Assembly: GCF_013403565.1 (NCBI RefSeq)
Contig: NZ_CP058627.1
Location: forward strand, 558,001-622,000
Source of the DNA: Chitinibacter bivalviorum
GTDB taxonomy: Bacteria; Pseudomonadota; Gammaproteobacteria; Burkholderiales; Chitinibacteraceae
Length of the DNA stretch: 64,000 nt
Reading direction: 5' to 3'
This document shows, piece after piece, positions 1,002 to 59,875 of the stretch (positions are counted from its first letter, which is position 1; each line of letters opens with the position of its first letter). A program made the translations under genes and the position numbers. The notes beneath the pieces were generated by a model that was given only the letters and a program-made list of their open reading frames with translations, was not told where the DNA came from and did not search any database.

Positions 1002-1050
1002 GGGTATCTTCATCAAGACCAATGAGTGATTGATTTTGATGAAGATACCT
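1002..1050. repeat. 49-bp palindromic element, copy 1
   Basis: The copy begins GGGTAT and ends ATACCT. Bases 1003-1016 are the exact reverse complement of 1036-1049. Pairing base i with base 50-i gives 22 of 24 pairs if two G-U pairs are counted. It starts on the base after the yitT-like stop codon and separates two convergent genes, so it could act as a 3'-end hairpin for both transcripts, although it has no T-run. Confidence 0.85.
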
Positions 1051-1065
1051 AGCGAGATTGAGGCA

Positions 1066-1731
1066 TTAAATGCATTCAGCCGCGAGAATGTCCTTGGCTT
1101 GATGCAATGAATCGACAATTTCCAGCTCAAGCTGGCGTACCGATTCTTCCGCTGGGCGCAAATCGGGCACCATGATCACGCGGCAGCCTGCCGCATGTCC
1201 GGCTTGAGCGCCGAAATTGCTGTCTTCAAACACCACGCATTCCTCGGGTAAGACGCCCAATTGAGTAATGGCTTTCAAGTAAATATCCGGCGCGGGTTTC
1301 GGGTGTGTGATTTCATCGCCGCACACGGCAAACTCGACGCGTGACCATAATCCCGCCATTTTCAAATGATGTTCGGCAATACTGCGGCGCGTTGAGGTCG
1401 CGATGGCTTTGCGTACGCCATTGGCTTCAAGAAAATCAAACAGCTCTAGCACGCCAGGGCGTAAGTCGATGCTGTCGGCACTGCGTTCCAGATAAATCTC
1501 GTGGGTGAGCTCTCGCAAGCGTTGCGTGGGAAAATCCACGCCCAGGCGTTCAATCAAATAAGCTTGCGTTTTAGAGGAATGCATCCCGACCATGCCCAGC
1601 GGAATCGACTCATGAATATCATGGCCCAATTGCCGTGCGGCATCGTGCCAGCACGTCAGTGCCATGCGTTCGGTTTCAAGCAGTAATCCATCCATATCAA
1701 AAATGGCGGCAATAATATTTGGGTGTTTCAT
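1066..1731 (-). CDS. HAD-superfamily phosphatase (beta-phosphoglucomutase-like)
   Basis: This 221-residue protein is a haloacid dehalogenase subfamily IA hydrolase. Motif I is FDMDGLLLET, with nucleophile Asp12 and acid/base Asp14. A helical cap follows at roughly residues 20-85. Motif II is the ATSTRR stretch, motif III the Lys in HPKPAPDIYL, and motif IV the acidic VFEDSNFGAQAG. The layout resembles beta-phosphoglucomutase and small sugar-phosphate or nucleotide phosphatases. The substrate cannot be read from sequence. The gene is divergent from the YchJ-like gene and converges on the YitT-like gene across a palindromic element. Confidence 0.88.
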   Translation of the reverse strand: MKHPNIIAAIFDMDGLLLETERMALTCWHDAARQLGHDIHESIPLGMVGMHSSKTQAYLIERLGVDFPTQRLRELTHEIYLERSADSIDLRPGVLELFDFLEANGVRKAIATSTRRSIAEHHLKMAGLWSRVEFAVCGDEITHPKPAPDIYLKAITQLGVLPEECVVFEDSNFGAQAGHAAGCRVIMVPDLRPAEESVRQLELEIVDSLHQAKDILAAECI

Positions 1732-1789
1732 TTGCGAATTGCGGCTTTATCGAAAACAATGACATCAGTTTAACTGAGCCTGAGCGACC

Positions 1790-2188
1790 ATGCCCGTAAC
1801 TTCTACCGTCAAAGCTGAGCCTTGCCCGTGTGGCGGCGCCCAATACCAACAATGCTGCCAGCCCTATCATCAAGGCCATCGTGTTGAAACCCCCGAGCAA
1901 TTGATGCGCTCGCGCTACAGCGCCTATGTGCTGGGATTGGAAGATTATCTATTGGCCAGCTGGCACGCCAGTACCCGCCCCAGCCAATTGGATTTGAATG
2001 AAGAGCCCAAGGCTAAATGGCTGGGCTTGACAGTGCATCATGCCGAAAGTGATGGCGATCAAGGCGTGGTGTCGTTTGTGGCGCGCTATAAAGTGGGTGG
2101 CAGGGCATATCGCCTGAGCGAACATAGCCGATTTGTGCGAGAAGAGGGACGTTGGTTTTATGTGGATGGTGAGGTGGCTGAATCTTAA
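1790..2188 (+). CDS. YchJ-family SEC-C protein (UPF0225)
   Basis: This is a 132-residue cytosolic protein. The N-terminus carries the cysteine cluster CPCGGAQYQQCC (residues 12-23), a SEC-C-type zinc-binding motif. It is followed by the LMRSRYSAYV and DYLLASWHAS segments typical of the YchJ family, an NTF2-like domain with one terminal zinc motif. YchJ members usually have a second SEC-C motif at the C-terminus; this shorter form has only the first. Function is unknown. It is transcribed divergently from the HAD phosphatase gene. Confidence 0.88.
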   Translation: MPVTSTVKAEPCPCGGAQYQQCCQPYHQGHRVETPEQLMRSRYSAYVLGLEDYLLASWHASTRPSQLDLNEEPKAKWLGLTVHHAESDGDQGVVSFVARYKVGGRAYRLSEHSRFVREEGRWFYVDGEVAES

Positions 2189-2279
2189 TGTGGCTGCAAA
2201 ATGAATATGTATCTTTTGTGTCCTGTCCATTCATCTGGATTCTTAGGGGCTGACATGACATGTTAGTATTTATTGCGAA

Positions 2280-2308
2280 CTGACTTTATTCAGTGGCAAG
2301 AATATAAA
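2280..2308 (+). promoter_or_regulatory. Possible sigma-70 promoter of the secreted protein gene
   Basis: CTGACT (2280-2285) and TATAAA (2303-2308) are separated by 17 bases, 24 bases upstream of the chosen start at 2333. The -35 box is imperfect; the spacing and -10 box are good. Prediction only. Confidence 0.4.
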
Positions 2309-2332
2309 TAATTGTGTTTTCGGAGATCAATC

Positions 2333-2893
2333 ATGATGCGCAAGACCCTCGTATGTACTTTGTTGGCTGCTGCTGGCTTGATGGCAAATAGCGCAGTTTT
2401 TGCCGCTGAACCAGAAGTTGTATTAAGCGAATCAGTTCGCAATAAAGTGGAAGCAACTGTTGAATACATCGACATTGACAACCGCGATGTGAAATTGATG
2501 ATGCCCGATGGCAATTTGGTGACTTTCCAGCGCGTTGATCCTAAAGTGACCAACTTTGACAAGCTACAATTGAACGACAAAGTCAATGTCGGTGGTGCTG
2601 AGTCGATTTCGATTGCTTTGAGCAAAGGCACTGCGGGTGTGCGTAAAGTTGAAGAATCTGAAGGTCGCGATGTAACGGCTGATGGCGTTGGTGTGGTGAA
2701 AATCCGTGCTTCATACAGCGACATCGTGGGCGTTGACTCGGTTAAAGGCAATGTTCAAGTTAAAACCCCAAGTAATGAAATCATCACGATTCCAGTTTCA
2801 AACAAAGAATTGCTGGCAAAAGCCGCGGTGGGCGACCAAGTGGTTACTACTGCACGCGCATCAGTTGTGGTCTGGGGTAACAACGACCATTAA
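2333..2893 (+). CDS. Unknown secreted protein with two similar halves
   Basis: The 186-residue product begins with a clear signal peptide (basic MMRK, hydrophobic core, predicted cut after VFA at residue 24) and is probably periplasmic. The start at 2333 is chosen because ggag lies 8 bases before it. I do not recognise the family. The mature protein seems to hold two related beta-rich units: residues about 35-85, with PDGNLVTF and LNDKV, and about 115-175, with PSNEIITI and VGDQV. This suggests an internal duplication. There are no cysteines after the signal peptide. It has its own likely promoter and terminator, so it is probably a single-gene unit. Confidence 0.75.
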   Translation: MMRKTLVCTLLAAAGLMANSAVFAAEPEVVLSESVRNKVEATVEYIDIDNRDVKLMMPDGNLVTFQRVDPKVTNFDKLQLNDKVNVGGAESISIALSKGTAGVRKVEESEGRDVTADGVGVVKIRASYSDIVGVDSVKGNVQVKTPSNEIITIPVSNKELLAKAAVGDQVVTTARASVVVWGNNDH

Positions 2894-4363: not shown

Positions 4364-5360
4364 GCGCGCTCAGTTTGCCATGGATTAGAGCCTGCGATTG
4401 GCCGAAGTTCATCTACTAAGCTTATCGCTTAGGTTTAATCGCGGTTTCGTCGCAGGGACGCGCGAGTCGGTGGGTGCGAATGTTTGGATAGGTACTCTGT
4501 AAGGGTATATCGATATAAATGTTTACAGAATTAATCTTGATTGATATACCCATTGATTTTTCGAATACTGCATTGGTCAAATTCGGATAAAGAAAGCCTA
4601 ATCCCATGATGATCTTGCCGATTAAGTCGTGACAGCGATGCCGTTGGGGCTGACATCAGATGCTGTGCATCAATTTCACGACCCTGATCCGGCCTATCAG
4701 GCCTATTCACTTATATGTGTTGCTGTTTGTGCAACACTCTTGAAGCAAAGTAGTAGAAGAAAATTTGTCTGCTTCCCCTCCCAAAATGAGCGATGACGCT
4801 TGGCGGTTGTATTGCCCAAGTAAAATCGGGTAGATGATGTGATTGGCGCGTTCAGCATAAAGTGAATTCGAATTTCGCCCTGATTTTGTCAATGGTGATC
4901 GATGCCGCTATGAAGGGGCACAGTCGTGCAGGCGGCAATGCAGCAGGCAATTGCCTAGTTTTTGCTTGATTTACAGCGCATATGGCGCGAAAAGGCAGTA
5001 ATTTGCTTTGCTCGCGCGTATTTATCGCGGTGAATAGCGGCGTGAAAAGGCTCACTCGGATCAGAGCTCTATCAAATGCCAAGGACACTGAGCCCGCCCA
5101 CGATATTGGCCTGAACTCTATGTCTTGGACGTGGCTATGCGTTGTTTTGAGTCCATTTCAGAAATCGTGTTGCTACTAGGGCTTTTACTTATAGGGAAAA
5201 ACGCAGTATTCCGCGCAACACCAAACAGGTAATTTGTCGCAATACCGAACTGTAACGGTAAAATTCACCTCGATCTGATATGGATTGAGTAATAAAACGG
5301 TCAGCAGAAATTCATCTACTGTCTGAATCGTACTTATAAACCTCCTCAAGGGTGGCGCGA
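4364..5360. other. About 1 kb without a convincing gene, upstream of livH
   Basis: No frame here encodes a protein I recognise. The short open frames lack ribosome sites and family motifs. The stretch contains one 49-bp palindromic element (4503-4551), a small hairpin gtgttgc/gcaacac near 4717-4736 and the palindrome aggcaattgcct (4945-4956) followed by a short T-run. It presumably carries the liv promoter and leader, but no strong promoter could be fixed. This is where a liv binding-protein gene would often sit. Confidence 0.6.
4503..4551. repeat. 49-bp palindromic element, copy 2
   Basis: Exactly 49 bases from GGGTATATC to GATATACCC, with 9-base perfect terminal arms and partial pairing further in. 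It lies 184 bases after the argD stop, the longest such distance among the copies. Confidence 0.85.
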
Positions 5361-14760: not shown

Positions 14761-14809
14761 GGGTATGTGCTTGAACACTTTGTGCAGATTGGGTTGTATG
14801 CCAATACTG
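14761..14809. repeat. 49-bp palindromic element, copy 3 (degenerate)
   Basis: It starts GGGTATGTGCTTGAA three bases after the globin stop. At exactly 49 bases it ends in ATACTG rather than ATACCC. About half the opposed positions still pair. It shares the GGGTATGTG start with the copies at 27526 and 56277. Confidence 0.6.
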
Positions 14810-16746: not shown

Positions 16747-16795
16747 GGGTATATCCATCAAGACGTTTTAATTGTTTGTCTTGATGAATATACCC
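16747..16795. repeat. 49-bp palindromic element, copy 4
   Basis: One extra G/C at each side extends the terminal arms to 19 bases (16746-16764 against 16778-16796) with a single mismatch. It lies 21 bases after the purU stop and 8 bases after the glnD stop on the other strand, so it is the only visible hairpin for both 3' ends. Confidence 0.88.
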
Positions 16796-16803: not shown

Positions 16804-19374
16804 TTATGGGTTCAGCGCCTGCAGCAGATCGTTCTCGATTTGCAATCGGGCCCGTTCGTCATTTAATACATTGCCGGTGACAAGAAAGTGATCTTCGGCC
16901 CGCTCGCCCAAAGTCATAATTTTGGCCGATTGAATCTCGATGCGATTGCCCGCCAGAATCCGCGCGATGGTCGAGAGTAAACCCGGGCGATCGCCAGCCA
17001 CGACAGACAGAATATAAAATTTCCCGCGTTCATCGGCCCGAATTTGCACGTGGGTTGCTACGGGGAAATGTTTCTGTTGCCGAGAAATACGAGCCGAGGG
17101 CGCGGCCTGCAAGGGCAGTTTTTTCTCAATCCGCTGTGCCAGCTCAAATTCAACGTAATTGATCAAATCACGATACGACGTCGTTAAGCCATCAGGGATG
17201 TAGACGTAAAAGGTATCCAGCGCATAGCCATGCGTGGTGGTATGAATATGTGCATCAAAAATGCTATAGCCAGAGCGTTCGAAAAAGCTGCAAATCTGGG
17301 CAAATAAATCAGGCTGGTCGAGTGTATACACGACGACCTGCAAACCTTCGCCAGATTCCGATAATTTGGCCTTTACAATTGGCTTATTGCTATTGATATG
17401 TCCCAACAGCACGCGGGTGTGCCAAGCAATATCGCGTGCATCGTGACGCAGGAAGTAGACCGTATCGAGCAATTGCCAGAAAGGCTGATGCGCGTCTTCG
17501 CGAAACCCGTACAGCCGCAGCAAACGCAGCGCTTCGTCTTGGCGCTCATTGAGCCAAGAGTGGGCGGTGATGTTCTGGTGATTCAGATAGCGCACCGTGC
17601 CTTTGAATAGGTCTTCCAGCAGCTTGGCTTTCCAGGCATTCCAAACTTTCGGGCTGGTGCCGCGAATATCGGCCACGGTGAGCAAATACAGTGCGTTCAA
17701 ATGGCGCTGATCTTTGACGAGCGCTGCAAATTCAGCAATGACATCGGGGTCGTACACATCCTGCTTCTGGGCAATCGACGACATGGTGAGATGGTGCGTC
17801 ACCAACCAGACGATCAAATCACGATCTTCCTGCGGTAGCGGATGTTGCGCGCACCATTTTTCGGTAATCACCGCACCGATTTGCGAATGATCGCCGCCGC
17901 GGCCTTTGCCAATATCATGAAATAGCGCCGCTAAATAAAGTACTTCGGGGCGCTCGAACTCTTCGAGCAGGCGCGAACAGAGCGGATATTCATGCGTAAA
18001 TGCATTCACCGCAAAGCGTCGTACATTGCGCAGCACCATCAATGTATGCTCGTCCACCGTGTACACATGAAAGAGATCATGCTGCATACGTCCAACAATG
18101 TCGCCAAACTCCGGAATATAGCGGCCCAATACGCCGTATTGATTCATACGCCGTAAAATGCGCGTTAAGCCGCGTGGCTCGCGAAAGAGGGCGACGAATA
18201 ATTGCTGATTGTGTGGCTTAGCCAGAAAATCATCGTCAATTTTATGCCGCGCATGCCACAAGGCGCGCAGCGTTTCAGGTGCAATATCGCGCGCTTCACG
18301 GCGTTGTTCAAAATGCAAAAACAGCGCCAGTATGCTCGAAGGTTTGCGCTCGAATAAAGCGGGGTCGGTGATTTCAAGTAGGCCATCGCGTATCTGAAAA
18401 TCATCACAAATCTGAATGGTTTCATAACCAATATACGAAAACAGCCGTGCCCTCAGCGCCTGTACCAGTACAGGCACGAGCTGAGTCACAATGCGTGCCG
18501 CCAGATAGTATTCGGCCATCAAGGCTTCGGATGCGCGCTGGGTAATCCGCCCCGCAGCGGATAGATCGTCAAAGCCAAACTCTTTGGCCAATGGGTGCTG
18601 GTAGTCAAATAAAATGCGGTCTTCGCGCCGTTTGGCGCGCCAATGTAAGGCAATTCGATAGGTACGCAAAACACGTTCGGCCTCGCACAGCTTTTGATTT
18701 TCTTCGACCGTGAGCATGCCCAAAGCGGCGAGCGCATGCCAATCCCGACCGAGCCGCTGGCTGGCGGCGATCCAGCCGATCAAGTGCAAATCACGTAGCC
18801 CACCCGGTGCTTCTTTAATATTGGGTTCGAGTTTGTAGGTGGCATTTTGAAATTTGCTATAGCGTGCTTGCTGCTCGATGAGCTTGGCATCAAAAAATTC
18901 TTTGGGGTCGATATGGCGATGCACCGTGTCCATGAACTCAGCAAAACGTTGCGTATCGCCGACCAAGACCCGCGTTTCTAACAGGGCGGTTTGCACCGTA
19001 ATGTCTTTTTCCGCCTCGTTCAAGCAATCGGCGATGGTGCGCACCGAATGGCCGACTTCCAGCCCAATATCCCACAGCTCACCGACGAAGATTTCGAGCT
19101 TTTCCAATAGTGCAGGGCTAGGCTGATCGGGCAGTAAAATCAGTAAATCAATGTCGGATGAGGGGTATAGCTCACCACGCCCATATCCGCCAACTGCTGC
19201 AAGCAATACCTCGCTGGTAAACTCATGGCGTTCCCACAATTCGGTCAGCGTTTTATCAGTGAGATTGGCCAGTGCATTGAGCAGGGGCGCCGCTTTTGAC
19301 GGCACATTAAAGCGCTCTTTGAGCGCAGCCTTTTCGCTGGCATAGGATTGACGAATGGCGGTGACAGAACGCAT
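16804..19374 (-). CDS. glnD: PII uridylyltransferase / uridylyl-removing enzyme GlnD
   Basis: This 856-residue glutamine sensor adds and removes UMP on PII proteins. In order it has a nucleotidyltransferase domain (GGYGRGELYPSSDIDLLI near 60-80, with the two metal aspartates), a PII-UTase helical linker, an HD hydrolase domain (ALFHDIGKGRGGDHSQIG), and two C-terminal ACT domains, one including VVYTLDQPDLFAQIC and the other VVAGDRPGLLSTIARIL. The ATG at 19374 has aaagg about 9 bases upstream and is preferred over an in-frame TTG 21 bases further out. It converges with purU. Its promoter must lie in the repeat-rich spacer above 19374. Confidence 0.95.
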   Translation of the reverse strand: MRSVTAIRQSYASEKAALKERFNVPSKAAPLLNALANLTDKTLTELWERHEFTSEVLLAAVGGYGRGELYPSSDIDLLILLPDQPSPALLEKLEIFVGELWDIGLEVGHSVRTIADCLNEAEKDITVQTALLETRVLVGDTQRFAEFMDTVHRHIDPKEFFDAKLIEQQARYSKFQNATYKLEPNIKEAPGGLRDLHLIGWIAASQRLGRDWHALAALGMLTVEENQKLCEAERVLRTYRIALHWRAKRREDRILFDYQHPLAKEFGFDDLSAAGRITQRASEALMAEYYLAARIVTQLVPVLVQALRARLFSYIGYETIQICDDFQIRDGLLEITDPALFERKPSSILALFLHFEQRREARDIAPETLRALWHARHKIDDDFLAKPHNQQLFVALFREPRGLTRILRRMNQYGVLGRYIPEFGDIVGRMQHDLFHVYTVDEHTLMVLRNVRRFAVNAFTHEYPLCSRLLEEFERPEVLYLAALFHDIGKGRGGDHSQIGAVITEKWCAQHPLPQEDRDLIVWLVTHHLTMSSIAQKQDVYDPDVIAEFAALVKDQRHLNALYLLTVADIRGTSPKVWNAWKAKLLEDLFKGTVRYLNHQNITAHSWLNERQDEALRLLRLYGFREDAHQPFWQLLDTVYFLRHDARDIAWHTRVLLGHINSNKPIVKAKLSESGEGLQVVVYTLDQPDLFAQICSFFERSGYSIFDAHIHTTTHGYALDTFYVYIPDGLTTSYRDLINYVEFELAQRIEKKLPLQAAPSARISRQQKHFPVATHVQIRADERGKFYILSVVAGDRPGLLSTIARILAGNRIEIQSAKIMTLGERAEDHFLVTGNVLNDERARLQIENDLLQALNP

Positions 19375-19492: not shown

Positions 19493-19674
19493 GTCGGCTG
19501 CTGACAAAGTGGGAAGTCACATTTTTCAAGTCTCGGCAAAGCCGAGCCTAAGAAATAAGGCATTGCAGTTCAGCCTTTATGTTTTATTCCCACCCCTCCC
19601 GCCCCCTCCTTGAGGGGAGCCTCGCTTCGCGAGTGGGATTTGTCATCAATCTGAAGGTATTGCTCTGCAATACC
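19472..19674. repeat. Spacer bounded by two near-identical small palindromes
   Basis: The palindromes ggtattgcTATgcaatacc (within 19472-19492) and ggtattgcTCTgcaatacc (19656-19674) bracket about 160 bases. Between them are a hairpin ctcggc/gccgag (19532-19546), a C-rich tract followed by tgagggga, and ctcgc/gcgag. This fits a small non-coding repeat unit or MITE-like insertion between glnD and map. There is no coding frame. Confidence 0.55.
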
Positions 19675-19697
19675 GGATTTAACTGGTTTTAAAGCAA

Positions 19698-20507
19698 TTA
19701 CCCGAGTAGGTATTTCTCAGGCTTGGGTGGCGTACCGGCTGATACTGTCAGGACTTCATAGCCTGTTTCGGTCACGAGTATCGTGTGTTCCCATTGCGCA
19801 GACAGGCTGCGATCTTTGGTAACGATGGTCCAGCCGTCGTTCATTTGTTTGATTTCACGTTTACCGGCGTTAATCATCGGTTCAATGGTGAAAATCATGC
19901 CTGCTTTCATTTCTGGGCCAGTTCCCGCTTTGCCATAGTGCAAAACTTGCGGCTCTTCATGAAACACTGAACCAATGCCGTGGCCGCAAAATTCCCGCAC
20001 GACTGAATAGCCCGCTTTTTCAGCGTATTTCTGAATCGCCGCGCCGATATCACCAAAATGCGCACCAGGTTTAACTTGCTCGATACCGATCCACATGCAA
20101 TCAAAAGTCACTTGTGATAGACGTTTTGCATGGCTAGGTACATTATCACCGACCATATACATCCGGCTGTTGTCACCGTGATAGCCGTCTTTGATGACGG
20201 TAATATCCAGATTCACCACGTCGCCATTTTTCAGCGGTTTGTCATTGGGAATGCCATGACAAATCACGTTATTCACCGAAGTGCAAATTGACTTTGGGTA
20301 GGGTATATAGCCAGGAGGGCAGTAATTCAATGGTGCTGGGATAGTACCCTGCACATTAACCATATATTCATGGCATAAGCGGTCGATCTCGGCGGTAGTG
20401 ACGCCTGGAACAATAAATGGCGTAATGTAATCGAGTACTTCGCTGCCGAGTCGGCCTGCGACGCGCATTTTCTCGATTTCATCTGCAGTTTTGATGGTGA
20501 TGGTCAT
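19698..20507 (-). CDS. map: Type I methionine aminopeptidase
   Basis: This 269-residue enzyme removes the initiator methionine from nascent proteins. The metal-binding pita-bread fold residues are visible: Asp in NLDITVIKDGYHGDNSRMY (two Asp), His in CGHGIGSVFHEEP, Glu in FTIEPMINAG and the final Glu in SAQWEHTILVTETG. The ATG at 20507 has gagg 6 bases upstream, so the longer open frame is not used. Length and lack of an N-terminal extension match type Ia. It is often next to rpsB; here it is not, standing between glnD and a ClC channel gene on the same strand. Confidence 0.96.
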   Translation of the reverse strand: MTITIKTADEIEKMRVAGRLGSEVLDYITPFIVPGVTTAEIDRLCHEYMVNVQGTIPAPLNYCPPGYIPYPKSICTSVNNVICHGIPNDKPLKNGDVVNLDITVIKDGYHGDNSRMYMVGDNVPSHAKRLSQVTFDCMWIGIEQVKPGAHFGDIGAAIQKYAEKAGYSVVREFCGHGIGSVFHEEPQVLHYGKAGTGPEMKAGMIFTIEPMINAGKREIKQMNDGWTIVTKDRSLSAQWEHTILVTETGYEVLTVSAGTPPKPEKYLLG

Positions 20508-23241: not shown

Positions 23242-23982
23242 TTAATTCAAATTATTCAATGCTTCGATCATTAATTTGTCTTGATCGAGTGAAATTTGTG
23301 CTGGTTTTGAGCGAATTGCATCGGGCAGCGCTTCATCAAGGCTGCGATACACGCCCGCGACCGAAACTAATTCCGCTTCCATGCAGGTCGTAAAAATACG
23401 CGCATTAGTGTCACCTCGCGCACCAGCCAGTGCGCGGCCACGCAGTGGCGCATAAACATGGATATTGCCATCGGCAATGACTTCAGCGCCATTCGATACT
23501 AGCGCCAGTACAATCAAATCACCGCCTTTGGCATACACTTGCTGCCCCGTACGTACAGGGCGGGTAATGATTGTTGCGCCTTGCTGGGTAAGGGTTTCAG
23601 GTTGATGCTCTGGCGGGGTATGTTGTGCTGAATTACTGGGGGCGATTTCGCTATCGAATAAAACAACCAATCCTGCCTCACGCGCCGCGACCTGTTGATC
23701 CTGATTGCCGCCTTGCGCCGCAATGGGGGCGAGTGCATATTGGCGCAGCAAATTGACCAAGGCCACGATTTCGACTGCGCTAGGAATTTGCGGCAGGCTA
23801 TTAAAATCGATCACGATTTGTTCGCCAGCGAGAAAATGATCGGTCCCGCCGAGTTGTTGCTGCAACGCCGCTTGCAGTACATCGCAATCGAAAGTAACAG
23901 GAACAAAGGCCGTCAAACGGGTTGTGGTGCTTTTAAATTCAAACAGGCTAGCCGTTTGTTCTGGATAGGCAAAACTCGTCAT
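23242..23982 (-). CDS. minC: Septum site-determining protein MinC
   Basis: This 246-residue inhibitor of FtsZ assembly has an N-terminal FtsZ-antagonist domain (about 10-110), a variable linker with HTPPEHQPE, and the C-terminal beta-helix domain that dimerises and binds MinD. The last contains GQQVYAKGGDLIVLALVSNGAEV (in part), DGNIHVYAPLRGRALAGARG and the conserved ARIFTTCMEAELVSVAG. It is the first gene of minCDE; its promoter must lie in 23983-24153, between it and ppsR on the same strand. Confidence 0.95.
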   Translation of the reverse strand: MTSFAYPEQTASLFEFKSTTTRLTAFVPVTFDCDVLQAALQQQLGGTDHFLAGEQIVIDFNSLPQIPSAVEIVALVNLLRQYALAPIAAQGGNQDQQVAAREAGLVVLFDSEIAPSNSAQHTPPEHQPETLTQQGATIITRPVRTGQQVYAKGGDLIVLALVSNGAEVIADGNIHVYAPLRGRALAGARGDTNARIFTTCMEAELVSVAGVYRSLDEALPDAIRSKPAQISLDQDKLMIEALNNLN

Positions 23983-31091: not shown

Positions 31092-33158
31092 TCAATCGCT
31101 CAGACCATTGTGGCGCAACAGTGCATCAATCGCAGGAGCGCGACCACGGAAGGCGGCAAATGATTCGGCTGCAGGGCGTGAGCCGCCCACGGCGAGGATT
31201 TCCTTGCGGAAACGCGCGCCTACGGCCGGGTTAACCACGCTGCTACCAGTTTGATCCGCTGCTTCTTCGAATGCCGCATAGGCGTCGGCGCTTAATACTT
31301 CAGCCCATTTATAGCTGTAGTAACCTGCCGCATAGCCGCCCGCGAAAATATGGCTGAATGATTGCGGGAAACGGTTGTATTCGGGTGGCAAAGGCAGTGC
31401 CAATTCTTGCTGTACGGCTTGGGCGAACGCAGTGAGATCACCCGCCGAAACGGCTTCTGATTTCTGATGTAGCGCCATGTCGAAGATCGAGAAATAGAGT
31501 TGGCGCTGCAAGCCAGAGCCACTGTGGAAGTTTTTCGCAGCCAGCATTTTATCGAACAGTGGGCGGGGTATCGCCTCAGAAGTCTCGATATGCTTAGTCA
31601 GTGCAGGCAATACCTGCCATTCCCATGCAAAGTTTTCCATAAACTGGCTCGGTAATTCAACTGCATCCCATTCCACACCGCTGATGCCCGATACTTCGAG
31701 CTCATCGACTTCGGTGAGCAGGTGATGCAGGGCATGGCCCATTTCATGAAATAGCGTAATCACGTCGTCGTGCGGCAGCATGGCGTCTTTACCATCCACG
31801 CCGCTGGCGAAATTGCACACAATCAGCGCGACTGGCGTTTGCACAGTGCCATCGGCTTTGAGTTTGCGACCACGCACATCATTCATCCACGCGCCGCCTT
31901 GCTTGCCTTCGCGCGCGTGCAGATCCATATACAAACCACCAACCAGCGAGCCGTCATTATTTTTCAATTCAAAATACTGTACATCGGTATGCCACACGGG
32001 GGCTTGTGCAGGAACGAATTGCAGGCCATACAGCTCGGAAATCAGCTTGAATAGGCCCGCCAATACCGTGGGTTCGGTGAAATATTGCTTCACTTCTTGT
32101 TCGCTGAACGAATACTTTTGCTCGCGCAGTCGCTCGGAAACCAAGGCCAGATCCCAGGCTTCAAGTTTCTCGATGCCAAATTCAGCTTTAGCAAACGCTT
32201 CCAGCTCGGCACGGTCTTCCAGCATATATGGCTTGGCGCGCACGGCGAGGCCTTTCAAGAATGAAATGACTTGTTCCGGGCTATCGGCCATTTTGGTCAC
32301 GAGCGAAGTTTCGCCAAAATTCTCGTGGCCGAGCAATTGCGCGCTTTCCTGTCTCAGTGCCAATATTTCAGGAATCAACTGGCCGTTATCCCAATCCGCT
32401 TTGCCAAACTCAGAGGCGCGCGTGACATAGGCTTTGTACAATTGCTCGCGCAAAGCGCGGTTTTGCACGTATTGCATCACCGGCAAGTAGCTCGGCATTT
32501 TTAGCGTGATTTTGTATAAATCAGTTTTGCCGTCAGCCGCGGCTTGCGCAGCGGCGGCAGCCAGATTGTCGTCTGGTAGGCCAGCCAGTTCGTCTTTGGT
32601 CACGTACAGTGCAAAATCATCAGTTGCATCGAGTACGTTTTGCGAGAAGCGGGTGGTCAGCTCGGAGAGTTTTTCTTCGATGTCTTTGAAACGGTTTTTC
32701 TGCTCGGCAGGTAATTCAGCGCCTGAGAGCACAAAGCCACGGATTGCGTCGTCGATAATCACTTTGCGCGTGGGGCTGAGCGCAGCGTATTCGCGCTCTT
32801 TGACTGCTTTATACAGCGCAAACAGTTTTTCGTTTTGCCCCAATTCGGTAAAGAAATTTGAAATACGCGGGATGTTGCTATTGTAGGCGTCGCGTAATTC
32901 GGGGGTATTGACCACCGATTCCAGATGCCCAATCACACCCCAGGCGCGACCAAGTTGTTCGAGCGGGTCTTCCAATACCGCCAGACTATCCCAGCTAGGC
33001 TCGGTGATATTTTCCGCCGCAGCGATTGCCGCACTGGCATTGGCTAGCAGGGTATCGAGCGCAGGATTAATATGCTCAGGCTTTACTGACGCATACTGGG
33101 GTAGGGTAGATAAATCGAGCAGCGGATTGTTCGAATTATTCACGAAGGTCGTTGTCAT
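31092..33158 (-). CDS. prlC: Oligopeptidase A (M3 metallopeptidase)
   Basis: This 688-residue cytosolic zinc peptidase of family M3 degrades short peptides and cleaved signal peptides. The zinc site is visible as FHEMGHALHHLL (near 475), with the third ligand in SGVEWDAVELPSQFMENFAWE. The N-terminal helical region starts NPLLDLSTLPQYASVKPEHI as in E. coli OpdA. Length is close to the family norm (680). It is divergent from the gamma carbonic anhydrase gene with about 96 bases between starts. Confidence 0.96.
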   Translation of the reverse strand: MTTTFVNNSNNPLLDLSTLPQYASVKPEHINPALDTLLANASAAIAAAENITEPSWDSLAVLEDPLEQLGRAWGVIGHLESVVNTPELRDAYNSNIPRISNFFTELGQNEKLFALYKAVKEREYAALSPTRKVIIDDAIRGFVLSGAELPAEQKNRFKDIEEKLSELTTRFSQNVLDATDDFALYVTKDELAGLPDDNLAAAAAQAAADGKTDLYKITLKMPSYLPVMQYVQNRALREQLYKAYVTRASEFGKADWDNGQLIPEILALRQESAQLLGHENFGETSLVTKMADSPEQVISFLKGLAVRAKPYMLEDRAELEAFAKAEFGIEKLEAWDLALVSERLREQKYSFSEQEVKQYFTEPTVLAGLFKLISELYGLQFVPAQAPVWHTDVQYFELKNNDGSLVGGLYMDLHAREGKQGGAWMNDVRGRKLKADGTVQTPVALIVCNFASGVDGKDAMLPHDDVITLFHEMGHALHHLLTEVDELEVSGISGVEWDAVELPSQFMENFAWEWQVLPALTKHIETSEAIPRPLFDKMLAAKNFHSGSGLQRQLYFSIFDMALHQKSEAVSAGDLTAFAQAVQQELALPLPPEYNRFPQSFSHIFAGGYAAGYYSYKWAEVLSADAYAAFEEAADQTGSSVVNPAVGARFRKEILAVGGSRPAAESFAAFRGRAPAIDALLRHNGLSD

Positions 33159-45503: not shown

Positions 45504-45526
45504 GGAGGGCTCCAATACGAATGTTT

Positions 45527-47952: not shown

Positions 47953-48258
47953 ATGACTCCTACGGTACAAATTGAAGGCAGTGTAGGCCGAGTGATCTTG
48001 TCGGGGCAGTTTGATTTCAGTGCTCATCGTGAGTTTCGCCAAGTGTGTGAATCTATCATCACCAATCCAGACATTAAAGAAGTCCTCGTAGACTTTCAAA
48101 ATGTAAACTACCTGGATAGTTCAGCACTGGGCATGTTGCTTCTGTTGAAGGAAAAAATTTCTGCGGCGAGCAAAACACTCGCTCTGGTGAACTGCAGAGA
48201 TACCGTGAAGCAAGTACTAGAAATCGCTTGTTTCGGTAAGATTTTTACAATTCGCTGA
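47953..48258 (+). CDS. STAS anti-anti-sigma factor (HsbA-like)
   Basis: This 101-residue single STAS domain has the switch serine in NYLDSSALGMLLLL (Ser56/Ser57), where partner kinases phosphorylate. Length and context match HsbA of Pseudomonas aeruginosa, an anti-anti-sigma factor that titrates FlgM when unphosphorylated and partners a diguanylate cyclase when phosphorylated. The HsbR-like gene starts 13 bases downstream. Orthology is inferred from gene order and domain; partner identity here is not shown by sequence alone. Confidence 0.88.
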   Translation: MTPTVQIEGSVGRVILSGQFDFSAHREFRQVCESIITNPDIKEVLVDFQNVNYLDSSALGMLLLLKEKISAASKTLALVNCRDTVKQVLEIACFGKIFTIR

Positions 48259-48271
48259 AAATAGGCATTTC

Positions 48272-50002
48272 ATGAAGATCTTAGTCGTTGACGATACCGA
48301 GGCGATACTTTTACTCATCTCTCGATTTGTTGAGGCTTTAGGTCATCAAGCTATCTTGGCTCGAAACGGCCAAGAAGCCATTGATGTATGGCGAGCTGAA
48401 CGTCCAGATCTGGTATTAATGGATGTCATGATGCCCATTATGTCTGGCCCCGAAGCTGCGGTGCAGATCAAAGCTGAGTCGGGTGCAACTTGGGTGCCCA
48501 TTGTTTTTGTGACTGGGGTCGGCGAAGAAAATGCACTGGCGGATGCAATTGAGCGCGGTGCAGATGACTACATCAATAAACCAGTCAATTTTCGTGTTCT
48601 TGAGGCCAAGCTCAAAGCCTTTGGGCGTACGCTTGACCTGAATCGCAAGGTCAGAGAGCAATCTCAGACCCTTGCTGATTACTATGAACATGCTGAAGAA
48701 GAAAAGCGGGTCGTTCGCCATTTGATGGAACAAATGGTCAATTCTGAACGACTTGCTGATCCACAATTTGAATATTGGCTCTCACCCGCCGAGAGCCTGT
48801 CTGGCGACTTGATTGCCGCTGCTCGCACTCCAGGTCAAGCTTTGCATATATTGCTTGCCGATGGTATTGGGCATGGGCTCACCGCCGCGCTCAATGTTCT
48901 GCCTCTGACTCAACCTTTTTACAGCATGACTGAAAAAGGCTATTCAATCAGCGATATTCTGTTTGAAATGAATAGCAAGGTTCGGCAGGTCTTGCCGATC
49001 GGGCGCTTCGTATGTGTCGCTTTAATTTCGATCGATGAAGTGGGCGGCACCGTTGAGGTCTGGAATGGTGGCATGCCACCTATTCAGGTTCTCAATGCGC
49101 AAGGAGAGGTGAGTCGCGTTTGCAATTCTGGCAACCTGCCTTTGGGCATTGTGCCATCTCATTCTTTGGATTTAGTGCCTGAACGGCTGTACTTCAAAGA
49201 GCCTGGCTTTATTGTGGCTTATTCGGATGGTTTGGTTGAGGCACGAAATAAACAAAAAGCAGAGTTTGGTCTTGATGCGCTGTTAGCGACGTTAGCTAAA
49301 TCATCTAAAGATTCAATGATTGCGAATGTGCAAGCTGAGTTAAGTGAATTTCTAGCTGGTGAACAGCATCATGATGATGTTTCACTGGTGGTGGCGCAAT
49401 TCGGAGTCGATGGTTTAGAGCTTAACAAAGCGGCCCCTGTTGAAACTAATGTTGAAAAATTTGAAGATATCTCGCCGCAATTTAGTCAAACGGCCGATTG
49501 TAATTGGCGCTATAGCTTGATTTTGAGTGCGCAAGAGCTGCGCTACCTCAATACCATTCCGTTTATGATGTCCTTTGTGAAGGAAATCAAAACCTTAACG
49601 CATGTTCAATCAGATGTCTTTTTGATTTTAACTGAGCTTTTTGTGAATGCGCTGGATCATGGTTTATTGTTGATGGATTCAAAAATGAAATCCGATCCTG
49701 ATGGTATGGAAAGCTATTTGGCACAAAGAGCTGAACGATTAGCGAATTTGCAAGAAGGCAAGATTGAAATTGATTTGATGGGTTTGAAATATAAAGATTC
49801 TGAAGTTTTAAAAATCCGCCTCAAAGACAGTGGCCTCGGCTTTGATTGGGCTGATACCTACAATGCTAACGATAAAAGTGCGATTCCATCGGATAGCTTT
49901 GGACGAGGTGTCACTTTAGTTCGTGCCCTAGCGATGAAGGTGCAATATATAGGCTTGGGGAACGAAGTTGAAGTGTATTACATGCCACCCAAAGCAACTT
50001 AA
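48272..50002 (+). CDS. Response regulator with PP2C phosphatase and kinase domains (HsbR-like)
   Basis: This 576-residue protein has a receiver domain (1-120; acid pair Asp7-Asp8, phosphoacceptor Asp51 in LVLMDVMMPIMSG) and a short coiled coil. A SpoIIE/PP2C phosphatase domain (about 165-385; SLSGDLIAA, LADGIGHGLTAALN, HHDDVSLVV) and a C-terminal HATPase_c domain (about 420-570; TELFVNALDHG, LKDSGLGFDW, GRGVTLVRAL) complete it. This is the HsbR domain order. The receiver would switch the protein between dephosphorylating and phosphorylating the STAS protein next door. The 3' end converges with the unknown gene on the other strand, four bases apart. Confidence 0.9.
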   Translation: MKILVVDDTEAILLLISRFVEALGHQAILARNGQEAIDVWRAERPDLVLMDVMMPIMSGPEAAVQIKAESGATWVPIVFVTGVGEENALADAIERGADDYINKPVNFRVLEAKLKAFGRTLDLNRKVREQSQTLADYYEHAEEEKRVVRHLMEQMVNSERLADPQFEYWLSPAESLSGDLIAAARTPGQALHILLADGIGHGLTAALNVLPLTQPFYSMTEKGYSISDILFEMNSKVRQVLPIGRFVCVALISIDEVGGTVEVWNGGMPPIQVLNAQGEVSRVCNSGNLPLGIVPSHSLDLVPERLYFKEPGFIVAYSDGLVEARNKQKAEFGLDALLATLAKSSKDSMIANVQAELSEFLAGEQHHDDVSLVVAQFGVDGLELNKAAPVETNVEKFEDISPQFSQTADCNWRYSLILSAQELRYLNTIPFMMSFVKEIKTLTHVQSDVFLILTELFVNALDHGLLLMDSKMKSDPDGMESYLAQRAERLANLQEGKIEIDLMGLKYKDSEVLKIRLKDSGLGFDWADTYNANDKSAIPSDSFGRGVTLVRALAMKVQYIGLGNEVEVYYMPPKAT

Positions 50003-50006
50003 TTGC

Positions 50007-50858
50007 TCAAATATAATGACTCAGACTGGCTAGCCCAAAACAACCTAGCCAGCTCGCAAATAGCAAATGCCATGCTTTTGGCGTCTTTGCTGAAACAATC
50101 GCGATCCCCGCCATCCACGCAAATCCTCCTGCTACACCCCAATAGTGGGGCAAGTGCCCAATAATCCAGCTATTGATATACGCCAGTAGTAGCCAAGGTG
50201 CTGCAGCTACGCCGGCCTTCTGGAAGGGGCTGAACTCAGTAGTGGGGGCTAAAGCCGGTAAATTATGGAGTAATGGCGGCAAAAAAGCATCGCAATCATT
50301 TTTTAAGCCTTTGACTAAGGTGAGGCTGACTTCCGGTTTGATTCCTGCCGCCAATAAGATGCTGGGCAAGCCTAAACTCGCTTCTGATCCCGGGAGTGCG
50401 TTTTCTGCATCTAATGTGTCTGCGGTGTTGCGAGCTGGGTTTTTGCGGATGACTTGCCATATTTGCCAGGCCGCACCACCTAGCCCCAAGCACCACGCTG
50501 CAAATTGTTGACTCGCCGCTAAGCGTTGTACACCCGCCAGCAATGCCATCAGTGACCCAGAGAAAAGTAAGGCATCATTGAGTTTTTGCTGGAAAAACTC
50601 AGTCTGACAATTCGCAGCTTGCTGATAAAGATGCGCACCTTTGATTTTTAGTCTGATGAGTATATTGCTGCAAGCATTAATGCCAATGGTTCTTACGACC
50701 ATACCTAGTGCATGTACTCGTGGGGTGCGGGTGGCGGGGGCTAGCGTTTGTGCTATTTCCAACCAATACCATTGGCGTGCATGGCCGGATTCAAGGTCCG
50801 ATAATAATAAAATCAGCCAGCATTGCTCTGCGTCACTCAGTGGCTTGAAGAGACTCAT
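50007..50858 (-). CDS. Unknown protein with C-terminal membrane helices, coupled to ubiA
   Basis: The 283-residue protein is not recognised. Residues 1-75 look soluble; about 95-135 and 205-283 are hydrophobic and predict several membrane helices, for example SGSLMALLAGVQRLAA and WMAGIAIVSA. The start at 50858 is chosen because its A is also the last base of the ubiA stop (TAATG), a coupling arrangement. The longer open frame reads through ubiA sequence and is rejected. Being third in ubiC-ubiA-this gene suggests a membrane or quinone-related role, but nothing in the sequence shows it. Confidence 0.65.
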   Translation of the reverse strand: MSLFKPLSDAEQCWLILLLSDLESGHARQWYWLEIAQTLAPATRTPRVHALGMVVRTIGINACSNILIRLKIKGAHLYQQAANCQTEFFQQKLNDALLFSGSLMALLAGVQRLAASQQFAAWCLGLGGAAWQIWQVIRKNPARNTADTLDAENALPGSEASLGLPSILLAAGIKPEVSLTLVKGLKNDCDAFLPPLLHNLPALAPTTEFSPFQKAGVAAAPWLLLAYINSWIIGHLPHYWGVAGGFAWMAGIAIVSAKTPKAWHLLFASWLGCFGLASLSHYI

Positions 50859-54248: not shown

Positions 54249-54297
54249 GGGTATATTAATAAAGATAAATAAGGTAAATGCGTAGATGGATATACCC
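54249..54297. repeat. 49-bp palindromic element, copy 7, containing the azlD start
   Basis: Exactly 49 bases from GGGTATATT to ATATACCC. The azlD ATG is at element position 38 in the right arm, and aagg at positions 23-26 in the centre is its only visible ribosome site. Folded RNA would place the start codon in a stem. Confidence 0.83.
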
Positions 54298-54615
54298 AAC
54301 TTAATTCTCATGCTGGCAGGAATGGCGCTGGTGACCTACGGCGTGCGAGTGGTGTTTTTCTTGCCTGGCGTCGGCGATCGTTTGCCACCCCGTTTACGGC
54401 AGGCCATGGCCTATGTGCCAGTGGCGGTTTTAACGGCGATTATTGTGCCGGAAGTATTTATCGCGCAGGGGCAATTGAATGCCCAGTGGCAAAATCCAGC
54501 GCTGTGGGGCATGCTGGCAACGGCTTGCGTGATGTGGAAAAGCAAGCGCCTCTTGCTGGCGATTGGAGTCGGGATGATGGTGTATTTCGCGCTACGCAGT
54601 CTGTTTGGCTACTAG
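54286..54615 (+). CDS. azlD: AzlD-family exporter small subunit
   Basis: This 109-residue protein with three or four membrane helices is the small partner of AzlC. It contains MLAGMALVTYGVRVVFFLPG, AMAYVPVAVLTAIIVPEVFI and the C-terminal LLAIGVGMMVYFALRSLFG, all typical of AzlD. The start at 54286 lies inside a 49-bp palindromic element, with aagg 11 bases upstream. The next in-frame ATG (54310) would trim the first helix. Canonical azlCD genes usually overlap or nearly touch; here they are 87 bases apart because of the inserted repeat. Confidence 0.9.
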   Translation: MDIPNLILMLAGMALVTYGVRVVFFLPGVGDRLPPRLRQAMAYVPVAVLTAIIVPEVFIAQGQLNAQWQNPALWGMLATACVMWKSKRLLLAIGVGMMVYFALRSLFGY

Positions 54616-56276: not shown

Positions 56277-56325
56277 GGGTATGTGACTGAAGATTAATAT
56301 TGGATTGATCTTTGCTTGCATACCC
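56277..56325. repeat. 49-bp palindromic element, copy 8
   Basis: Exactly 49 bases, GGGTATGTG... to ATACCC, 23 bases after the dbpA stop. As RNA of the dbpA sense, 22 of 24 opposed positions pair; six of these are G-U pairs that would be mismatches in the opposite strand's RNA. Confidence 0.85.
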
Positions 56326-58322: not shown

Positions 58323-58330
58323 CCAGCCCA

Positions 58331-58545
58331 TTAAGCAGGAGAGTGTATTTGTCTAGTGACAAAATACCACCGAAGGCGCAATGGCACCCGCGAATCGCTC
58401 AGGTATCAGGACTGCTTAATTCGAGCCGAAGTTGGCTCAAATACTCTGGAGAGCGATGCTCGGCGATCAAGCGCCCGCAGCATCCACCGAAGGGCTCAAC
58501 AATCACAGCATGATTGGAAAATCTCAGGTGACAGGACAGAGGGGT
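58331..58545 (+). promoter_or_regulatory. Tandem glycine riboswitch
   Basis: Two glycine aptamers in series. Aptamer 1 (58331-58419) is closed by ttaagcag/ctgcttaa and has the conserved accgaagg and ctcaggtatcaggac cores. Aptamer 2 (about 58441-58545) is closed by ctctg/cagag and has ccgaaggg and ctcaggtgacaggac. A linker of about 20 bases joins them. A hairpin cgccag/ctggcg (58551-58572) follows before the gcvT ribosome site at 58591. The arrangement is that of the gcv ON-switch, where glycine permits expression. The off-state structure cannot be proved by eye. Confidence 0.92.
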
Positions 58546-58602
58546 GTTGCCCGCCAGGCGAAGAAACTGGCGGCCTATGAGGTTATACCCTAGGAAAGTC
58601 TC

Positions 58603-59727
58603 ATGACCGCAACGACCCATACTGAAGCTGCACCCAAAACTACTCCCCTTTACGACTCGCACGTTGCTGCTGGCGCGAAAATCGTTGATTTCGCTGGCTG
58701 GGCGATGCCGATCCATTACGGCTCACAACTTAAAGAACACGAAATCGTCCGCACTGACGCGGGCATGTTTGATGTTTCGCACATGTGCGTCATCGATATC
58801 ACCGGTGGTGAGGCCAAAGAATGGCTGCGCACGCTGATCGCGAATGACGTTGAAAAGCTCGGCTTTGAAGGCAAGGCGCTGTATTCAGGCATGCTGACGG
58901 CTGACGGCAGCGTGATTGACGATTTGATCGTATATCTCACGCATTACGGCTACCGCATGGTCGTGAACGCGGGTACGGCTGACAAAGACATCGCTTGGAT
59001 GCTCAAGCAAGCCGAAGGTCGCAATGTGGTGCTGACTGTGCGCCGCGAGCTGGCGATGATCGCCGTCCAAGGCCCCAATGCCATCGAAAAAGCCTGCAAA
59101 GTGCTGCACGAAGAGTGGGAAAGCACGATCACAAGCCTGAAAGTATTCCAAGGTTTCCCGTTTGGCTCGGTTGAAGAGGGCTGGTTTATCGCGCGCACGG
59201 GTTACACCGGCGAAGACGGCCTTGAAATCATGTTGCCTGCCGACGAAGCGCCATTATTCTGGAAAGCCTTGCTCGGTGCTGGCGTTGCGCCAATTGGTTT
59301 GGGCGCGCGCGACACGCTGCGTCTGGAAGCGGGCATGAATTTGTACGGCCACGATATGGACGAAACCATTTCACCATTGCAAGCCGGCATGGGCTGGACG
59401 ATTGCGTGGGAACCCGCCGATCGCAACTTTATCGGTCGCGCAGCGCTCGAGGCCGAACGCGCCGCTGGTGTAGCCATGAAGCAAGTTGGCTTGGTGCTTG
59501 AAGGCCGTGGCGTGTTGCGCGAAGGTCAGAAGGTCGTTGTTGAAGATATCGGCGAAGGCATCATCACCAGCGGTACTTTCTCGCCGACACTCAAGCATTC
59601 GGTGGCGATCGCGCGCGTTCCGGCAGGGACTGGTGCGACAGCGCAAGTTGATCTTCGCGGCACTTTGACCGATGTGCGCGTGGTGAAAATGCCTTTTGTG
59701 CGCAACGGCAAAAAAGTATTTGAATAA
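58603..59727 (+). CDS. gcvT: Glycine cleavage system T protein (aminomethyltransferase)
   Basis: This 374-residue enzyme transfers the methylene group from aminomethyl-lipoyl GcvH to tetrahydrofolate, releasing ammonia. The N-terminal [21 protein letters not shown] and [13 protein letters not shown], the central [14 protein letters not shown] and the C-terminal [20 protein letters not shown] are family signatures. taggaaag lies 5 bases before the ATG. It is the first gene of gcvT-gcvH-gcvP and sits directly behind the glycine riboswitch. Confidence 0.97.
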
Positions 59728-59732
59728 AACCG

Positions 59733-59806
59733 TAGGGTGCAATAAGGAAACGCCGCATTGCTCCTTGTCGTAAATCGGTGCAAAGCGCTTCGCTGATTGC
59801 ACCCTA
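59733..59806. repeat. Inverted-repeat element between gcvT and gcvH
   Basis: 11-base perfect terminal arms tagggtgcaat/attgcacccta bound 74 bases, five bases after the gcvT stop. Such gtagggtgcaat-type units look like a dispersed non-coding repeat, but only one copy is in this window. Confidence 0.6.
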
Positions 59807-59826
59807 TAATAGTTTAGTTGTCGTAG

Positions 59827-59875
59827 GGGTATATCCCTGTACACCTTTTAAATAAAGATTTCCAATTAAATACCC
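59827..59875. repeat. 49-bp palindromic element, copy 9
   Basis: Exactly 49 bases, GGGTATATC... to ATACCC, 16 bases before the gcvH start and 20 bases after the neighbouring 74-bp inverted repeat. About 15 of 24 opposed positions pair. It lies inside the gcv operon, so it cannot be a strong terminator. Confidence 0.82.

What the first reader, a model, noticed from the sequence alone, without database searches (positions are those of the whole stretch)
1002..59875. A family of nine intergenic elements, each exactly 49 bp, with ends GGGTAT...ATACCC
Copies are at 1002, 4503, 14761 (degenerate), 16747, 27526, 52372, 54249, 56277 and 59827. Every one spans 49 bases from the first G of GGGTAT to the last base of ATACCC. 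The interiors share little sequence, yet the length never varies, which argues against chance and against an ordinary MITE with a conserved body. All are intergenic, apart from one that reaches into the azlD start. No target-site duplication is evident. This looks like a structured repeat or recognition site that is mobile or maintained by selection.
Basis: seen in the sequence. Interest (0 to 1): 0.82.

Follow-up and report, generated by a model that had tools for sequence, protein, structure and literature searches.

The report
Genome-wide 49-bp symmetric DNA site
A 49-base, two-fold symmetric DNA signal recurs roughly every 3.5 thousand bases in the chromosomes of three related groups of chitin-degrading bacteria and is kept in place by selection; it looks like the docking site of an unidentified protein that works on the whole chromosome, not like a jumping element.

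Summary
GGGTAT-N37-ATACCC occurs 243 times in the genome; in 464 kb it occurs 37 times against 0-1 at any other spacing. A symmetric matrix finds 243 sites in 864 kb against 2 in shuffled sequence, about one per 3.5 kb. The window holds 19.
It does not behave like a mobile element: half the sites are centred in genes; sister species keep a site in 20 of 27 orthologous placements (controls 0 of 29, 3 of 95), and in intergenic pairs chiefly GTAT and one A per half-site stay constant.
As a family it is not a hairpin.
111 of 486 ends carry a third GTAT at a fixed offset outside, about 3 expected.
Sites are scarce in short divergent intergenic regions, shun each other in this genome (only partly in relatives), and occur in 15 of 43 family genomes.
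Best reading: binding site of an unidentified, probably chromosome-organising protein; an uptake-type signal is the main rival. The protein was not found.

The parts
1002..1050 (.). 49-bp site, directly after the stop of a YitT-family gene (ORF 390-1001); near-perfect palindrome
   Evidence: (37.1 bits)
4503..4551 (.). 49-bp site, exact ends
   Evidence: 38.5 bits
10897..10945 (.).
   Evidence: (32.5 bits); orthologous sites in G002 and G005
14761..14809 (.). 49-bp site with weak right end (ATACTG) backed by a third half-element (GGTAT) outside
   Evidence: (30.3 bits); orthologous region has a site of at least 10 bits in G002, G003, G004 and 9.3 bits in G005
16747..16795 (.). 49-bp site between convergent formyltransferase-family and glnD-type genes
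   Evidence: (41.2 bits); orthologous site with a different interior in G003; in G002 none, with a shorter gap (22 bp)
19163..19211 (.). 49-bp site inside the glnD-type gene
   Evidence: (19.5 bits); orthologous site in G005
19655..19703 (.). 49-bp site, third half-element right
   Evidence: (24.6 bits)
23562..23610 (.). weak 49-bp site, third half-element right
   Evidence: (10.5 bits); orthologues 4.9, 8.9 and 11.6 bits
27526..27574 (.). 49-bp site directly after a PEP-synthase-type gene (ORF 25089-27524), third half-element right
   Evidence: (32.7 bits)
31985..32033 (.). weak 49-bp site, third half-element left
   Evidence: (10.2 bits)
33050..33098 (.). weak 49-bp site
   Evidence: 14.8 bits
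34443..34491 (.). 49-bp site, third half-element right
   Evidence: (26.5 bits)
50658..50706 (.). 49-bp site
   Evidence: 28.4 bits
52372..52420 (.). 49-bp site, exact ends
   Evidence: 41.7 bits
54249..54297 (.). 49-bp site overlapping the start of azlD (ORF 54286-54615)
   Evidence: (38.2 bits)
56277..56325 (.). 49-bp site, exact ends
   Evidence: 33.0 bits
58542..58590 (.). 49-bp site overlapping the last 8 bases of a tandem glycine riboswitch
   Evidence: 19.2 bits
59827..59875 (.). 49-bp site, exact ends
   Evidence: 41.4 bits
61027..61075 (.). 49-bp site
   Evidence: 22.7 bits

Best explanation
Each element is a cis-acting binding site for a sequence-specific, two-fold symmetric DNA-binding protein. 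Each half-site reads (G)(G)GTATnKCCnTvAArRYCWWT: GTAT near the edge, an A one helical turn further in, and an A/T-rich stretch near the dyad. The dyad lies on base 25, so the main contacts would fall about 10 and 20.5 bp from it, on one face of the helix; this suggests a dimer or tetramer that bends the centre. An end that lacks the outer CC is often backed by one further GTAT (ATAC-N8/9-GTAT), as if another DNA-reading domain of the same complex docked there. About 1,000 such sites, one per 3.5 kb, mostly away from divergent promoters, are held in place by selection in genes and between genes. Most likely they anchor a lineage-specific chromosome-organising (nucleoid) protein. Shown: site, geometry, third half-element, in-place conservation, scarcity in divergent regions, clade restriction. 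Inferred: that a protein binds, that the centre bends, and that the role is chromosome organisation. The protein is unknown.
For: Spacing peak; 243 sites against 2 in shuffled sequence; symmetric column conservation with little arm co-variation; third half-element at 111 of 486 ends, about 3 expected, also seen in G002, G003, G004, G005 and G014; site kept at 8 of 10 intergenic and 12 of 17 coding placements against 0 of 29 and 3 of 95 controls, with columns 3-6 and 15 at 0.94-1.00 identity and 15 of the other 18 interior columns at 0.19-0.50 in the eight intergenic pairs; similar density in four sampled regions, 2.7-3.0 per 10 kb; 12 sites in 97 divergent against 39 in 91 convergent intergenic regions; mutual avoidance within 1 kb in G000 (21 gaps against 54.8 +- 5.7 in a gene-aware null); no site of at least 10 bits in two GC-rich small contigs totalling 73.6 kb, while 40 kb of G014 at similar GC (59%) has eight.
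Against: No binding protein was found. In the sister genomes gaps under 500 bp are not depleted (12 against 13.7 +- 3.2), only those under 1 kb (15 against 25.7 +- 3.8); several short gaps are one orthologous locus counted in several species or repeats inside genes. Regular spacing is therefore shown for one genome only. The second longest site-free gap (16 kb) lies in the window among apparently native genes. The 37 exact sites are more palindromic than their columns predict (about 0.43 against 0.36, my mean). An HU-like paralogue present in all 15 site-bearing genomes is also in 8 of 9 genomes of a genus (g7) that lacks the sites. Orthologous placements are few and not independent: the 30 stem from 15 sites. 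Uptake signals can also be dense and genic.
Confidence: 0.5

Rival explanations
1. A self-recognition signal for DNA uptake (or for recombination/repair of incoming DNA), spread by molecular drive, as DUS and USS are in other families. Density, genic copies, conserved positions and absence from foreign DNA would all follow.
For: About 1,000 copies per chromosome by extrapolation, in genes and between genes; degenerate copies in excess; in-place conservation; none in the two GC-rich small contigs; Neisseriaceae and Pasteurellaceae use such signals (listing; PMC1939737 passages).
Against: [quoted passage not shown] This site is symmetric, 49 bp long and about three times sparser than the ~1,000-bp average USS spacing given for H. 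influenzae (PMC7811141 passage). A symmetric site suits an intracellular dimer better than a pilin receptor (inference).
Confidence: 0.2
2. A polar or segregation-type signal (like Chi or KOPS) that acts with replication direction through the third half-element.
For: The side of the third half-element follows replichore: rightward 44 of 62 in regions A and W, leftward 33 of 47 in regions B and C, and is not tied to gene direction in coding sites (29 against 26).
Against: The core is symmetric. The bias is of the size that strand composition skew could give: inside the 66 exact sites T exceeds A and G exceeds C in regions A and W together, and the reverse holds in B and C. The side that keeps GG shows the same bias. 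The skew was not modelled formally.
Confidence: 0.1
3. A transcription-end element: intrinsic terminator or 3'-end hairpin.
For: Excess between convergent genes (42 sites, 8.2 expected) and within 10 bp of stop codons (42 distances, 5.3 expected); some copies are near-perfect palindromes; the 37 exact sites pair more than columns predict.
Against: Half the sites are centred in genes; TTTT follows 8 of 75 stop-adjacent sites, no more than at the same offset after all stops (0.11 against 0.119); over all 243 sites arm pairing is near column expectation.
Confidence: 0.05
4. A mobile MITE or REP-like element with conserved ends only.
For: Many copies, terminal inverted repeats, intergenic enrichment.
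Against: No clean empty site among 30 placements, half the copies genic, orthologous positions kept, few solo half-sites (237 of 255 strong half-sites lie in full sites), Y1/RAYT transposase domain undetected in G003, G005, G014, G015 and G036 although they bear sites.
Confidence: 0.03

Closest known systems
DNA uptake sequences (DUS of Neisseriaceae, USS of Pasteurellaceae)
   Same: Many copies, degenerate copies in excess, genic and intergenic, lineage-restricted (PMC1939737 passages; PMC7811141 passages)
   Different: Shorter and non-palindromic (same passages); here 49 bp, two-fold symmetric, sparser, with an optional third half-element
HIP1 palindrome of cyanobacteria
   Same: Highly repeated lineage-specific palindrome in the chromosome (PMC4390886, search listing only)
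   Different: HIP1 is a contiguous 8-bp sequence with orphan methyltransferases; here a gapped composite site. No methyltransferase link was tested
matS/MatP of E. coli
   Same: Dedicated chromosome-organising site (PMC3330122, search listing only); that matS is palindromic is recalled
   Different: matS: 13 bp, 23 copies in the Ter domain; here 49 bp, about 1,000 copies by extrapolation, similar density in four sampled regions
Spaced motif pairs of unknown function, e.g. GAATCCAT-N23-ATGGATTC in Bradyrhizobium, GCTTAT-N5-AAGCG in Acidovorax, CCTAC-N19-TAGGT in Desulfatibacillum
   Same: Gapped, (near-)palindromic pairs; two of these three are noted as frequent between convergent genes and the Bradyrhizobium one as lying near 3' ends; function unknown (PMC5217627 section 13)
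   Different: 9 to 125 copies among the eight selected motifs, mostly intergenic; no conservation between species or third half-element reported in that section
P1-type partition site parS and large serine-integrase attP sites (recalled, from no call)
   Same: Long site with recognition boxes at both ends and a bent or A/T-rich centre
   Different: One or few copies per replicon; not shown to be related

Membership tests
REP/BIME with RAYT transposase | Short hairpin-forming palindrome | tested here: not met
   Over 243 sites arm pairing 0.367 against 0.341 expected from columns, no G-T excess; the 37 exact sites alone show a larger excess
REP/BIME with RAYT transposase | Cognate Y1 transposase in the genome | tested here: not met
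   PF01797 undetected (E <= 0.001) in G003, G005, G014, G015, G036, all site-bearing; one match in a 204-aa frame in G000
MITE / mobile element | Insertion, seen as empty sites | tested here: not met
   0 of 30 orthologous placements with a gap near zero. Of the seven placements without a 10-bit site, six keep about the same length (gaps 44-52) and one is shorter (22 bp)
MITE / mobile element | Target-site duplication | not tested
   Only the average base composition of the flanks was looked at
DNA uptake sequence | High copy number, genic and intergenic, degenerate copies in excess | tested here: met
DNA uptake sequence | Non-palindromic core | tested here: not met
   Two-fold symmetric
DNA uptake sequence | Raises uptake in competent cells | not testable with these tools
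   Needs a transformation assay
Intrinsic terminator | Stable hairpin followed by a T run | tested here: not met
   TTTT after 8 of 75 stop-adjacent sites, background level
Described RNA family (Rfam) | Covariance-model match | tested here: not met
   Only two glycine riboswitch matches in the window at gathering cut-offs
Polar signals (Chi, KOPS) | Orientation with replication | tested here: inconclusive
   Third half-element follows replichore 77 of 109, at a level that composition skew could give
Site of a nucleoid/chromosome-organising protein | Sites spread over the chromosome, regularly spaced | tested here: inconclusive
   Similar density in the four regions sampled; regular spacing in G000, only partly in relatives
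Site of a nucleoid/chromosome-organising protein | Cognate protein | tested here: inconclusive
   HU-like paralogue in 24 of 43 genomes (E <= 1e-19): all 15 with sites, but also 9 without; KfrA_N and MukB do not track the sites

The most novel reading that the evidence does not exclude
A dedicated bacterial chromosome-organising system, gained in the ancestor of three Chitinibacteraceae genera, in which an undescribed multimeric protein reads about a thousand spaced 49-bp composite sites (two inverted half-sites plus an optional third) as genome-wide anchors.
Probability: 0.4. Interest if true: 0.9.

Novelty: new variant of a known kind. Interest (0 to 1): 0.77.

Why it matters
Genome-wide iterated DNA signals are few, and the known ones (Chi, KOPS, matS, DUS/USS) each opened a line of work (recalled). 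This one is longer and geometrically stricter than those, is kept in place while the rest of its interior is free to change in intergenic DNA, and is confined to one clade whose close relatives lack it. That makes its function directly testable: find the protein by pull-down with the 49-mer, then map chromosome contacts with and without it.

Tried and rejected
Hairpin/RNA element: disfavoured. Mobile element and REP/RAYT: disfavoured. Different end hexamers or spacings in relatives without sites: no inverted hexamer pair stood out at spacings of 8-89 in 80 kb each of G007, G011, G012 or 8-79 in 200 kb each of G043 and G045, so other arrangements are not excluded. The HU-like paralogue as dedicated binding protein: attractive at first, weakened because 8 of 9 g7 genomes have it (one copy broken) and lack the sites, and because the site-bearing g10 copies are more divergent (52%) than the intact g7 copies (62-64%). 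KfrA_N: in 5 of 15 site-bearing genomes. MukB: weak matches only, in 4 of 15 site-bearing genomes. Third-half-element polarity as a functional direction: not claimed. An excess of the IHF consensus inside sites (49 against 18.7 +- 4.1 in column shuffles) was not built upon, because that null ignores neighbouring-base correlation. A scan of the viral collection with a looser pattern returned two stretches, not pursued beyond scoring. Literature: searches listed no title or abstract that describes this motif; three papers were opened (PMC5217627, PMC7811141, PMC1939737); one search matched 716 papers, of which 8 were listed.
Full report
OBSERVATION. In 464 kb (the window plus 400 kb of the same chromosome) GGGTAT-Nn-ATACCC occurs 37 times at n = 37, once each at 9, 38 and 52, and not at all at other values from 0 to 119. 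Genome-wide the count is 243 at N37 and 262 for N30-N44; the reversed control gives 0 and 1. N38 is a small real class: seven of the places listed, plus one N40. Two-mismatch copies are also in excess at N37 (64; 6-18 at the other spacings from 25 to 49, except 40 at N35; most of those 40 are register shifts of the same sites). Among all hexamers at spacings of 10-59 in the 464 kb, GGGTAT at N37 is the top inverted pair (37; next is 16, a register shift).

SIZE OF THE FAMILY. An iterated symmetric matrix, trained on the same DNA, finds 243 sites of at least 10 bits in 864 kb of G000 against 2 in a second-order Markov shuffle. That is about one per 3.5 kb, or by extrapolation about 1,000 per chromosome. 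Density is 2.7-3.0 per 10 kb in four regions and 1.8-3.2 in the stretches of G002-G005. The window holds 19. Two GC-rich small contigs (64% and 59% GC, 73.6 kb in all, probably plasmids) have none of at least 10 bits; 20 kb of a third contig of chromosomal GC has four; 40 kb of G014, at 59% GC, has eight.

ANATOMY. The half-site is (G)(G)GTATnKCCnTvAArRYCWWT, mirrored about base 25. G3, T4, A5, T6 are 0.96-1.00 conserved, A15 0.78. Over 243 sites, arms pair at 0.367 of positions against 0.341 expected from single columns; registers shifted by 1-2 show no such excess and G-T pairs are not enriched. The 37 exact sites alone show more (mean about 0.43 against 0.36 over positions 7-24, computed by me), and some are near-perfect palindromes, so a fraction of the strong sites may form hairpins. 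As a family this is a two-fold symmetric site, not a hairpin. Half-sites pair in the inverted 49-bp arrangement (218), rarely one base longer (8), and 0-4 times at the other gaps from -6 to 14; everted (16 and 20) and direct (23) signals turned out to reflect a third half-element. At 111 of 486 site ends an exact GTAT begins 7 or 8 bases beyond the 49 bp (ATAC-N8/9-GTAT); about 3 are expected (0.0065 per end). It is found at 89 of 213 ends lacking CC and at 22 of 273 ends with CC; one site of 243 has it on both sides. It recurs at 15 of 54, 22 of 90, 4 of 22, 12 of 44 and 4 of 16 site ends in G002, G005, G004, G003 and G014, and is equally common in genic and intergenic sites of G000 (55 and 55).

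WHERE THE SITES ARE. Of 243 sites, 122 are centred in predicted genes (203 expected for random points), 66 in tandem (22 expected), 42 in convergent (8.2 expected) and 12 in divergent intergenic regions (9.4 expected); one is at an edge. Per region of at least 30 bp: 39 sites in 91 convergent, 66 in 317 tandem, 12 in 97 divergent, of which 3 in the 71 divergent regions under 300 bp. Gene calls are mine, from codon usage, without annotation. T runs follow stop-adjacent sites no more than elsewhere (8 of 75). In G000 sites avoid each other: 6 gaps under 500 bp against 25.5 +- 4.5 and 21 under 1 kb against 54.8 +- 5.7 in a null that keeps gene structure; CV 0.80 against 0.97 +- 0.06. Against this, in 375 kb of four sister genomes gaps under 500 bp are not depleted (12 against 13.7 +- 3.2) while those under 1 kb are (15 against 25.7 +- 3.8), with a plain uniform null; some of the short gaps are one orthologous locus counted in several species or repeats within genes.

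EVOLUTION. With flanks as anchors, 23 of 30 orthologous placements in sister species keep a site against 4 of 72 random points, and none of the 30 shows a gap near zero. These 30 placements come from 15 sites. Of the seven without a 10-bit site, six keep about the same length and one, 16747 in G002, is shorter. With gene-aware controls: intergenic 8 of 10, coding 12 of 17, site-free intergenic 0 of 29, site-free coding 3 of 95. In the eight intergenic pairs, columns 3-6 and 15 are 0.94-1.00 identical, while 15 of the other 18 interior columns are 0.19-0.50; in the twelve coding pairs the whole interior is fairly conserved (0.62-0.88), as the protein would require. The sites are therefore stationary and selected for their contact bases. 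In the family, 15 of 43 genomes carry 100-291 exact copies and 28 carry 0-2. The 15 belong to three genera that are also the closest to G000 by PpsA identity (94-97, 91-92 and 88%; others at most 87%), so a single origin is simplest. A scan of named genomes with a stricter pattern returned 22 stretches: 11 Chitinibacter, 5 Chitinilyticum, 4 Deefgea, 1 Iodobacter and 1 unassigned MAG; the tool notes that the window's own or near records may be left out. I infer that the window is from Deefgea (GC 49%; one 87% match over 1.1 kb to D. rivuli); the G-handle genera are unnamed.

SEARCH FOR THE PROTEIN. The odd dyad and the A/T steps near it suggested an HU/IHF-type bender (inference). All 15 site-bearing genomes have an extra HU-like paralogue, with a short insertion in the genus of the window, but so do 8 of 9 genomes of g7 (one copy broken, in G011) and, weakly, G034, which lack the sites. 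It is not sufficient. RAYT, KfrA_N and MukB do not track the sites. No candidate is proposed with confidence.

MECHANISM. I commit to a site for an unidentified multimeric DNA-binding protein (about 0.9 for 'protein site under selection, not mobile'; about 0.5 for chromosome organisation as its role). Spread over the sampled chromosome, scarcity in short divergent regions and mutual avoidance in G000 favour an architectural role; the preference for unconstrained 3' intergenic DNA is then a placement effect (inference). The uptake-signal rival shares most of these features and fits less well mainly on symmetry, length and density: DUS/USS are described as non-palindromic and not as evenly spaced as compaction sites should be (PMC1939737, passages).

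LITERATURE SEEN. PMC5217627: passages and section 13. PMC1939737: passages. PMC7811141: passages. PMC4390886, PMC3630211 and PMC3330122: search listings only. No description of this motif appeared in the listings; most subscription papers are outside that library.

Noticed in passing
window 58326-58549: Tandem glycine riboswitch (two RF00504 aptamers); a 49-bp site begins at 58542, overlapping its 3' end.
   Followed up: no
L197, L205-L212 (G000:C1:1106335-1106634 and orthologues): Extra HU-like paralogue in g1, g10, g11 and most of g7, with a short insertion in g1; in two pieces in G011. Function unknown.
   Followed up: partly
L085 3798-7333 and L086 3330-6772: An Iodobacter violaceini contig and an unassigned MAG share a near-identical site with a second site 3.4-3.5 kb away; the genes around them in L085 look, by eye, like a metabolic cluster. 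Possibly transferred from a site-bearing donor.
   Followed up: partly
G000:C2 (L189, L192, L193): The 43-kb contig seems to repeat a unit of about 13.5 kb three times (KfrA_N at 5236, 18769, 32271), with mobilisation-, resolvase- and tetracycline-efflux/TetR-like genes (by eye, first 20 kb); it carries no site of at least 10 bits.
   Followed up: no
site interiors, G000: The side of the third half-element and the side that keeps GG follow replichore, not gene direction; T and G exceed A and C inside exact sites of regions A and W together, and the reverse in B and C. Probably strand composition skew.
   Followed up: partly
G000:C1 361023-383273 (region A) and window 34492-50657: The longest site-free gap (22 kb) contains integrase-, resolvase- and primase-like genes (by eye), as expected if foreign DNA lacks the sites; the second longest (16 kb), in the window, holds apparently native chemotaxis-type genes, which that idea does not explain.
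   Followed up: no
L094 (IMGVR_UViG_2931094325_000001): A viral-collection contig carries two sites of at least 10 bits in the 14.8 kb held; host and origin not examined.
   Followed up: no
L051: A 204-aa frame with a RAYT-like Y1 transposase domain in G000, with one 33-bit site about 0.5 kb from the matched domain; the domain was undetected in several site-bearing relatives.
   Followed up: yes
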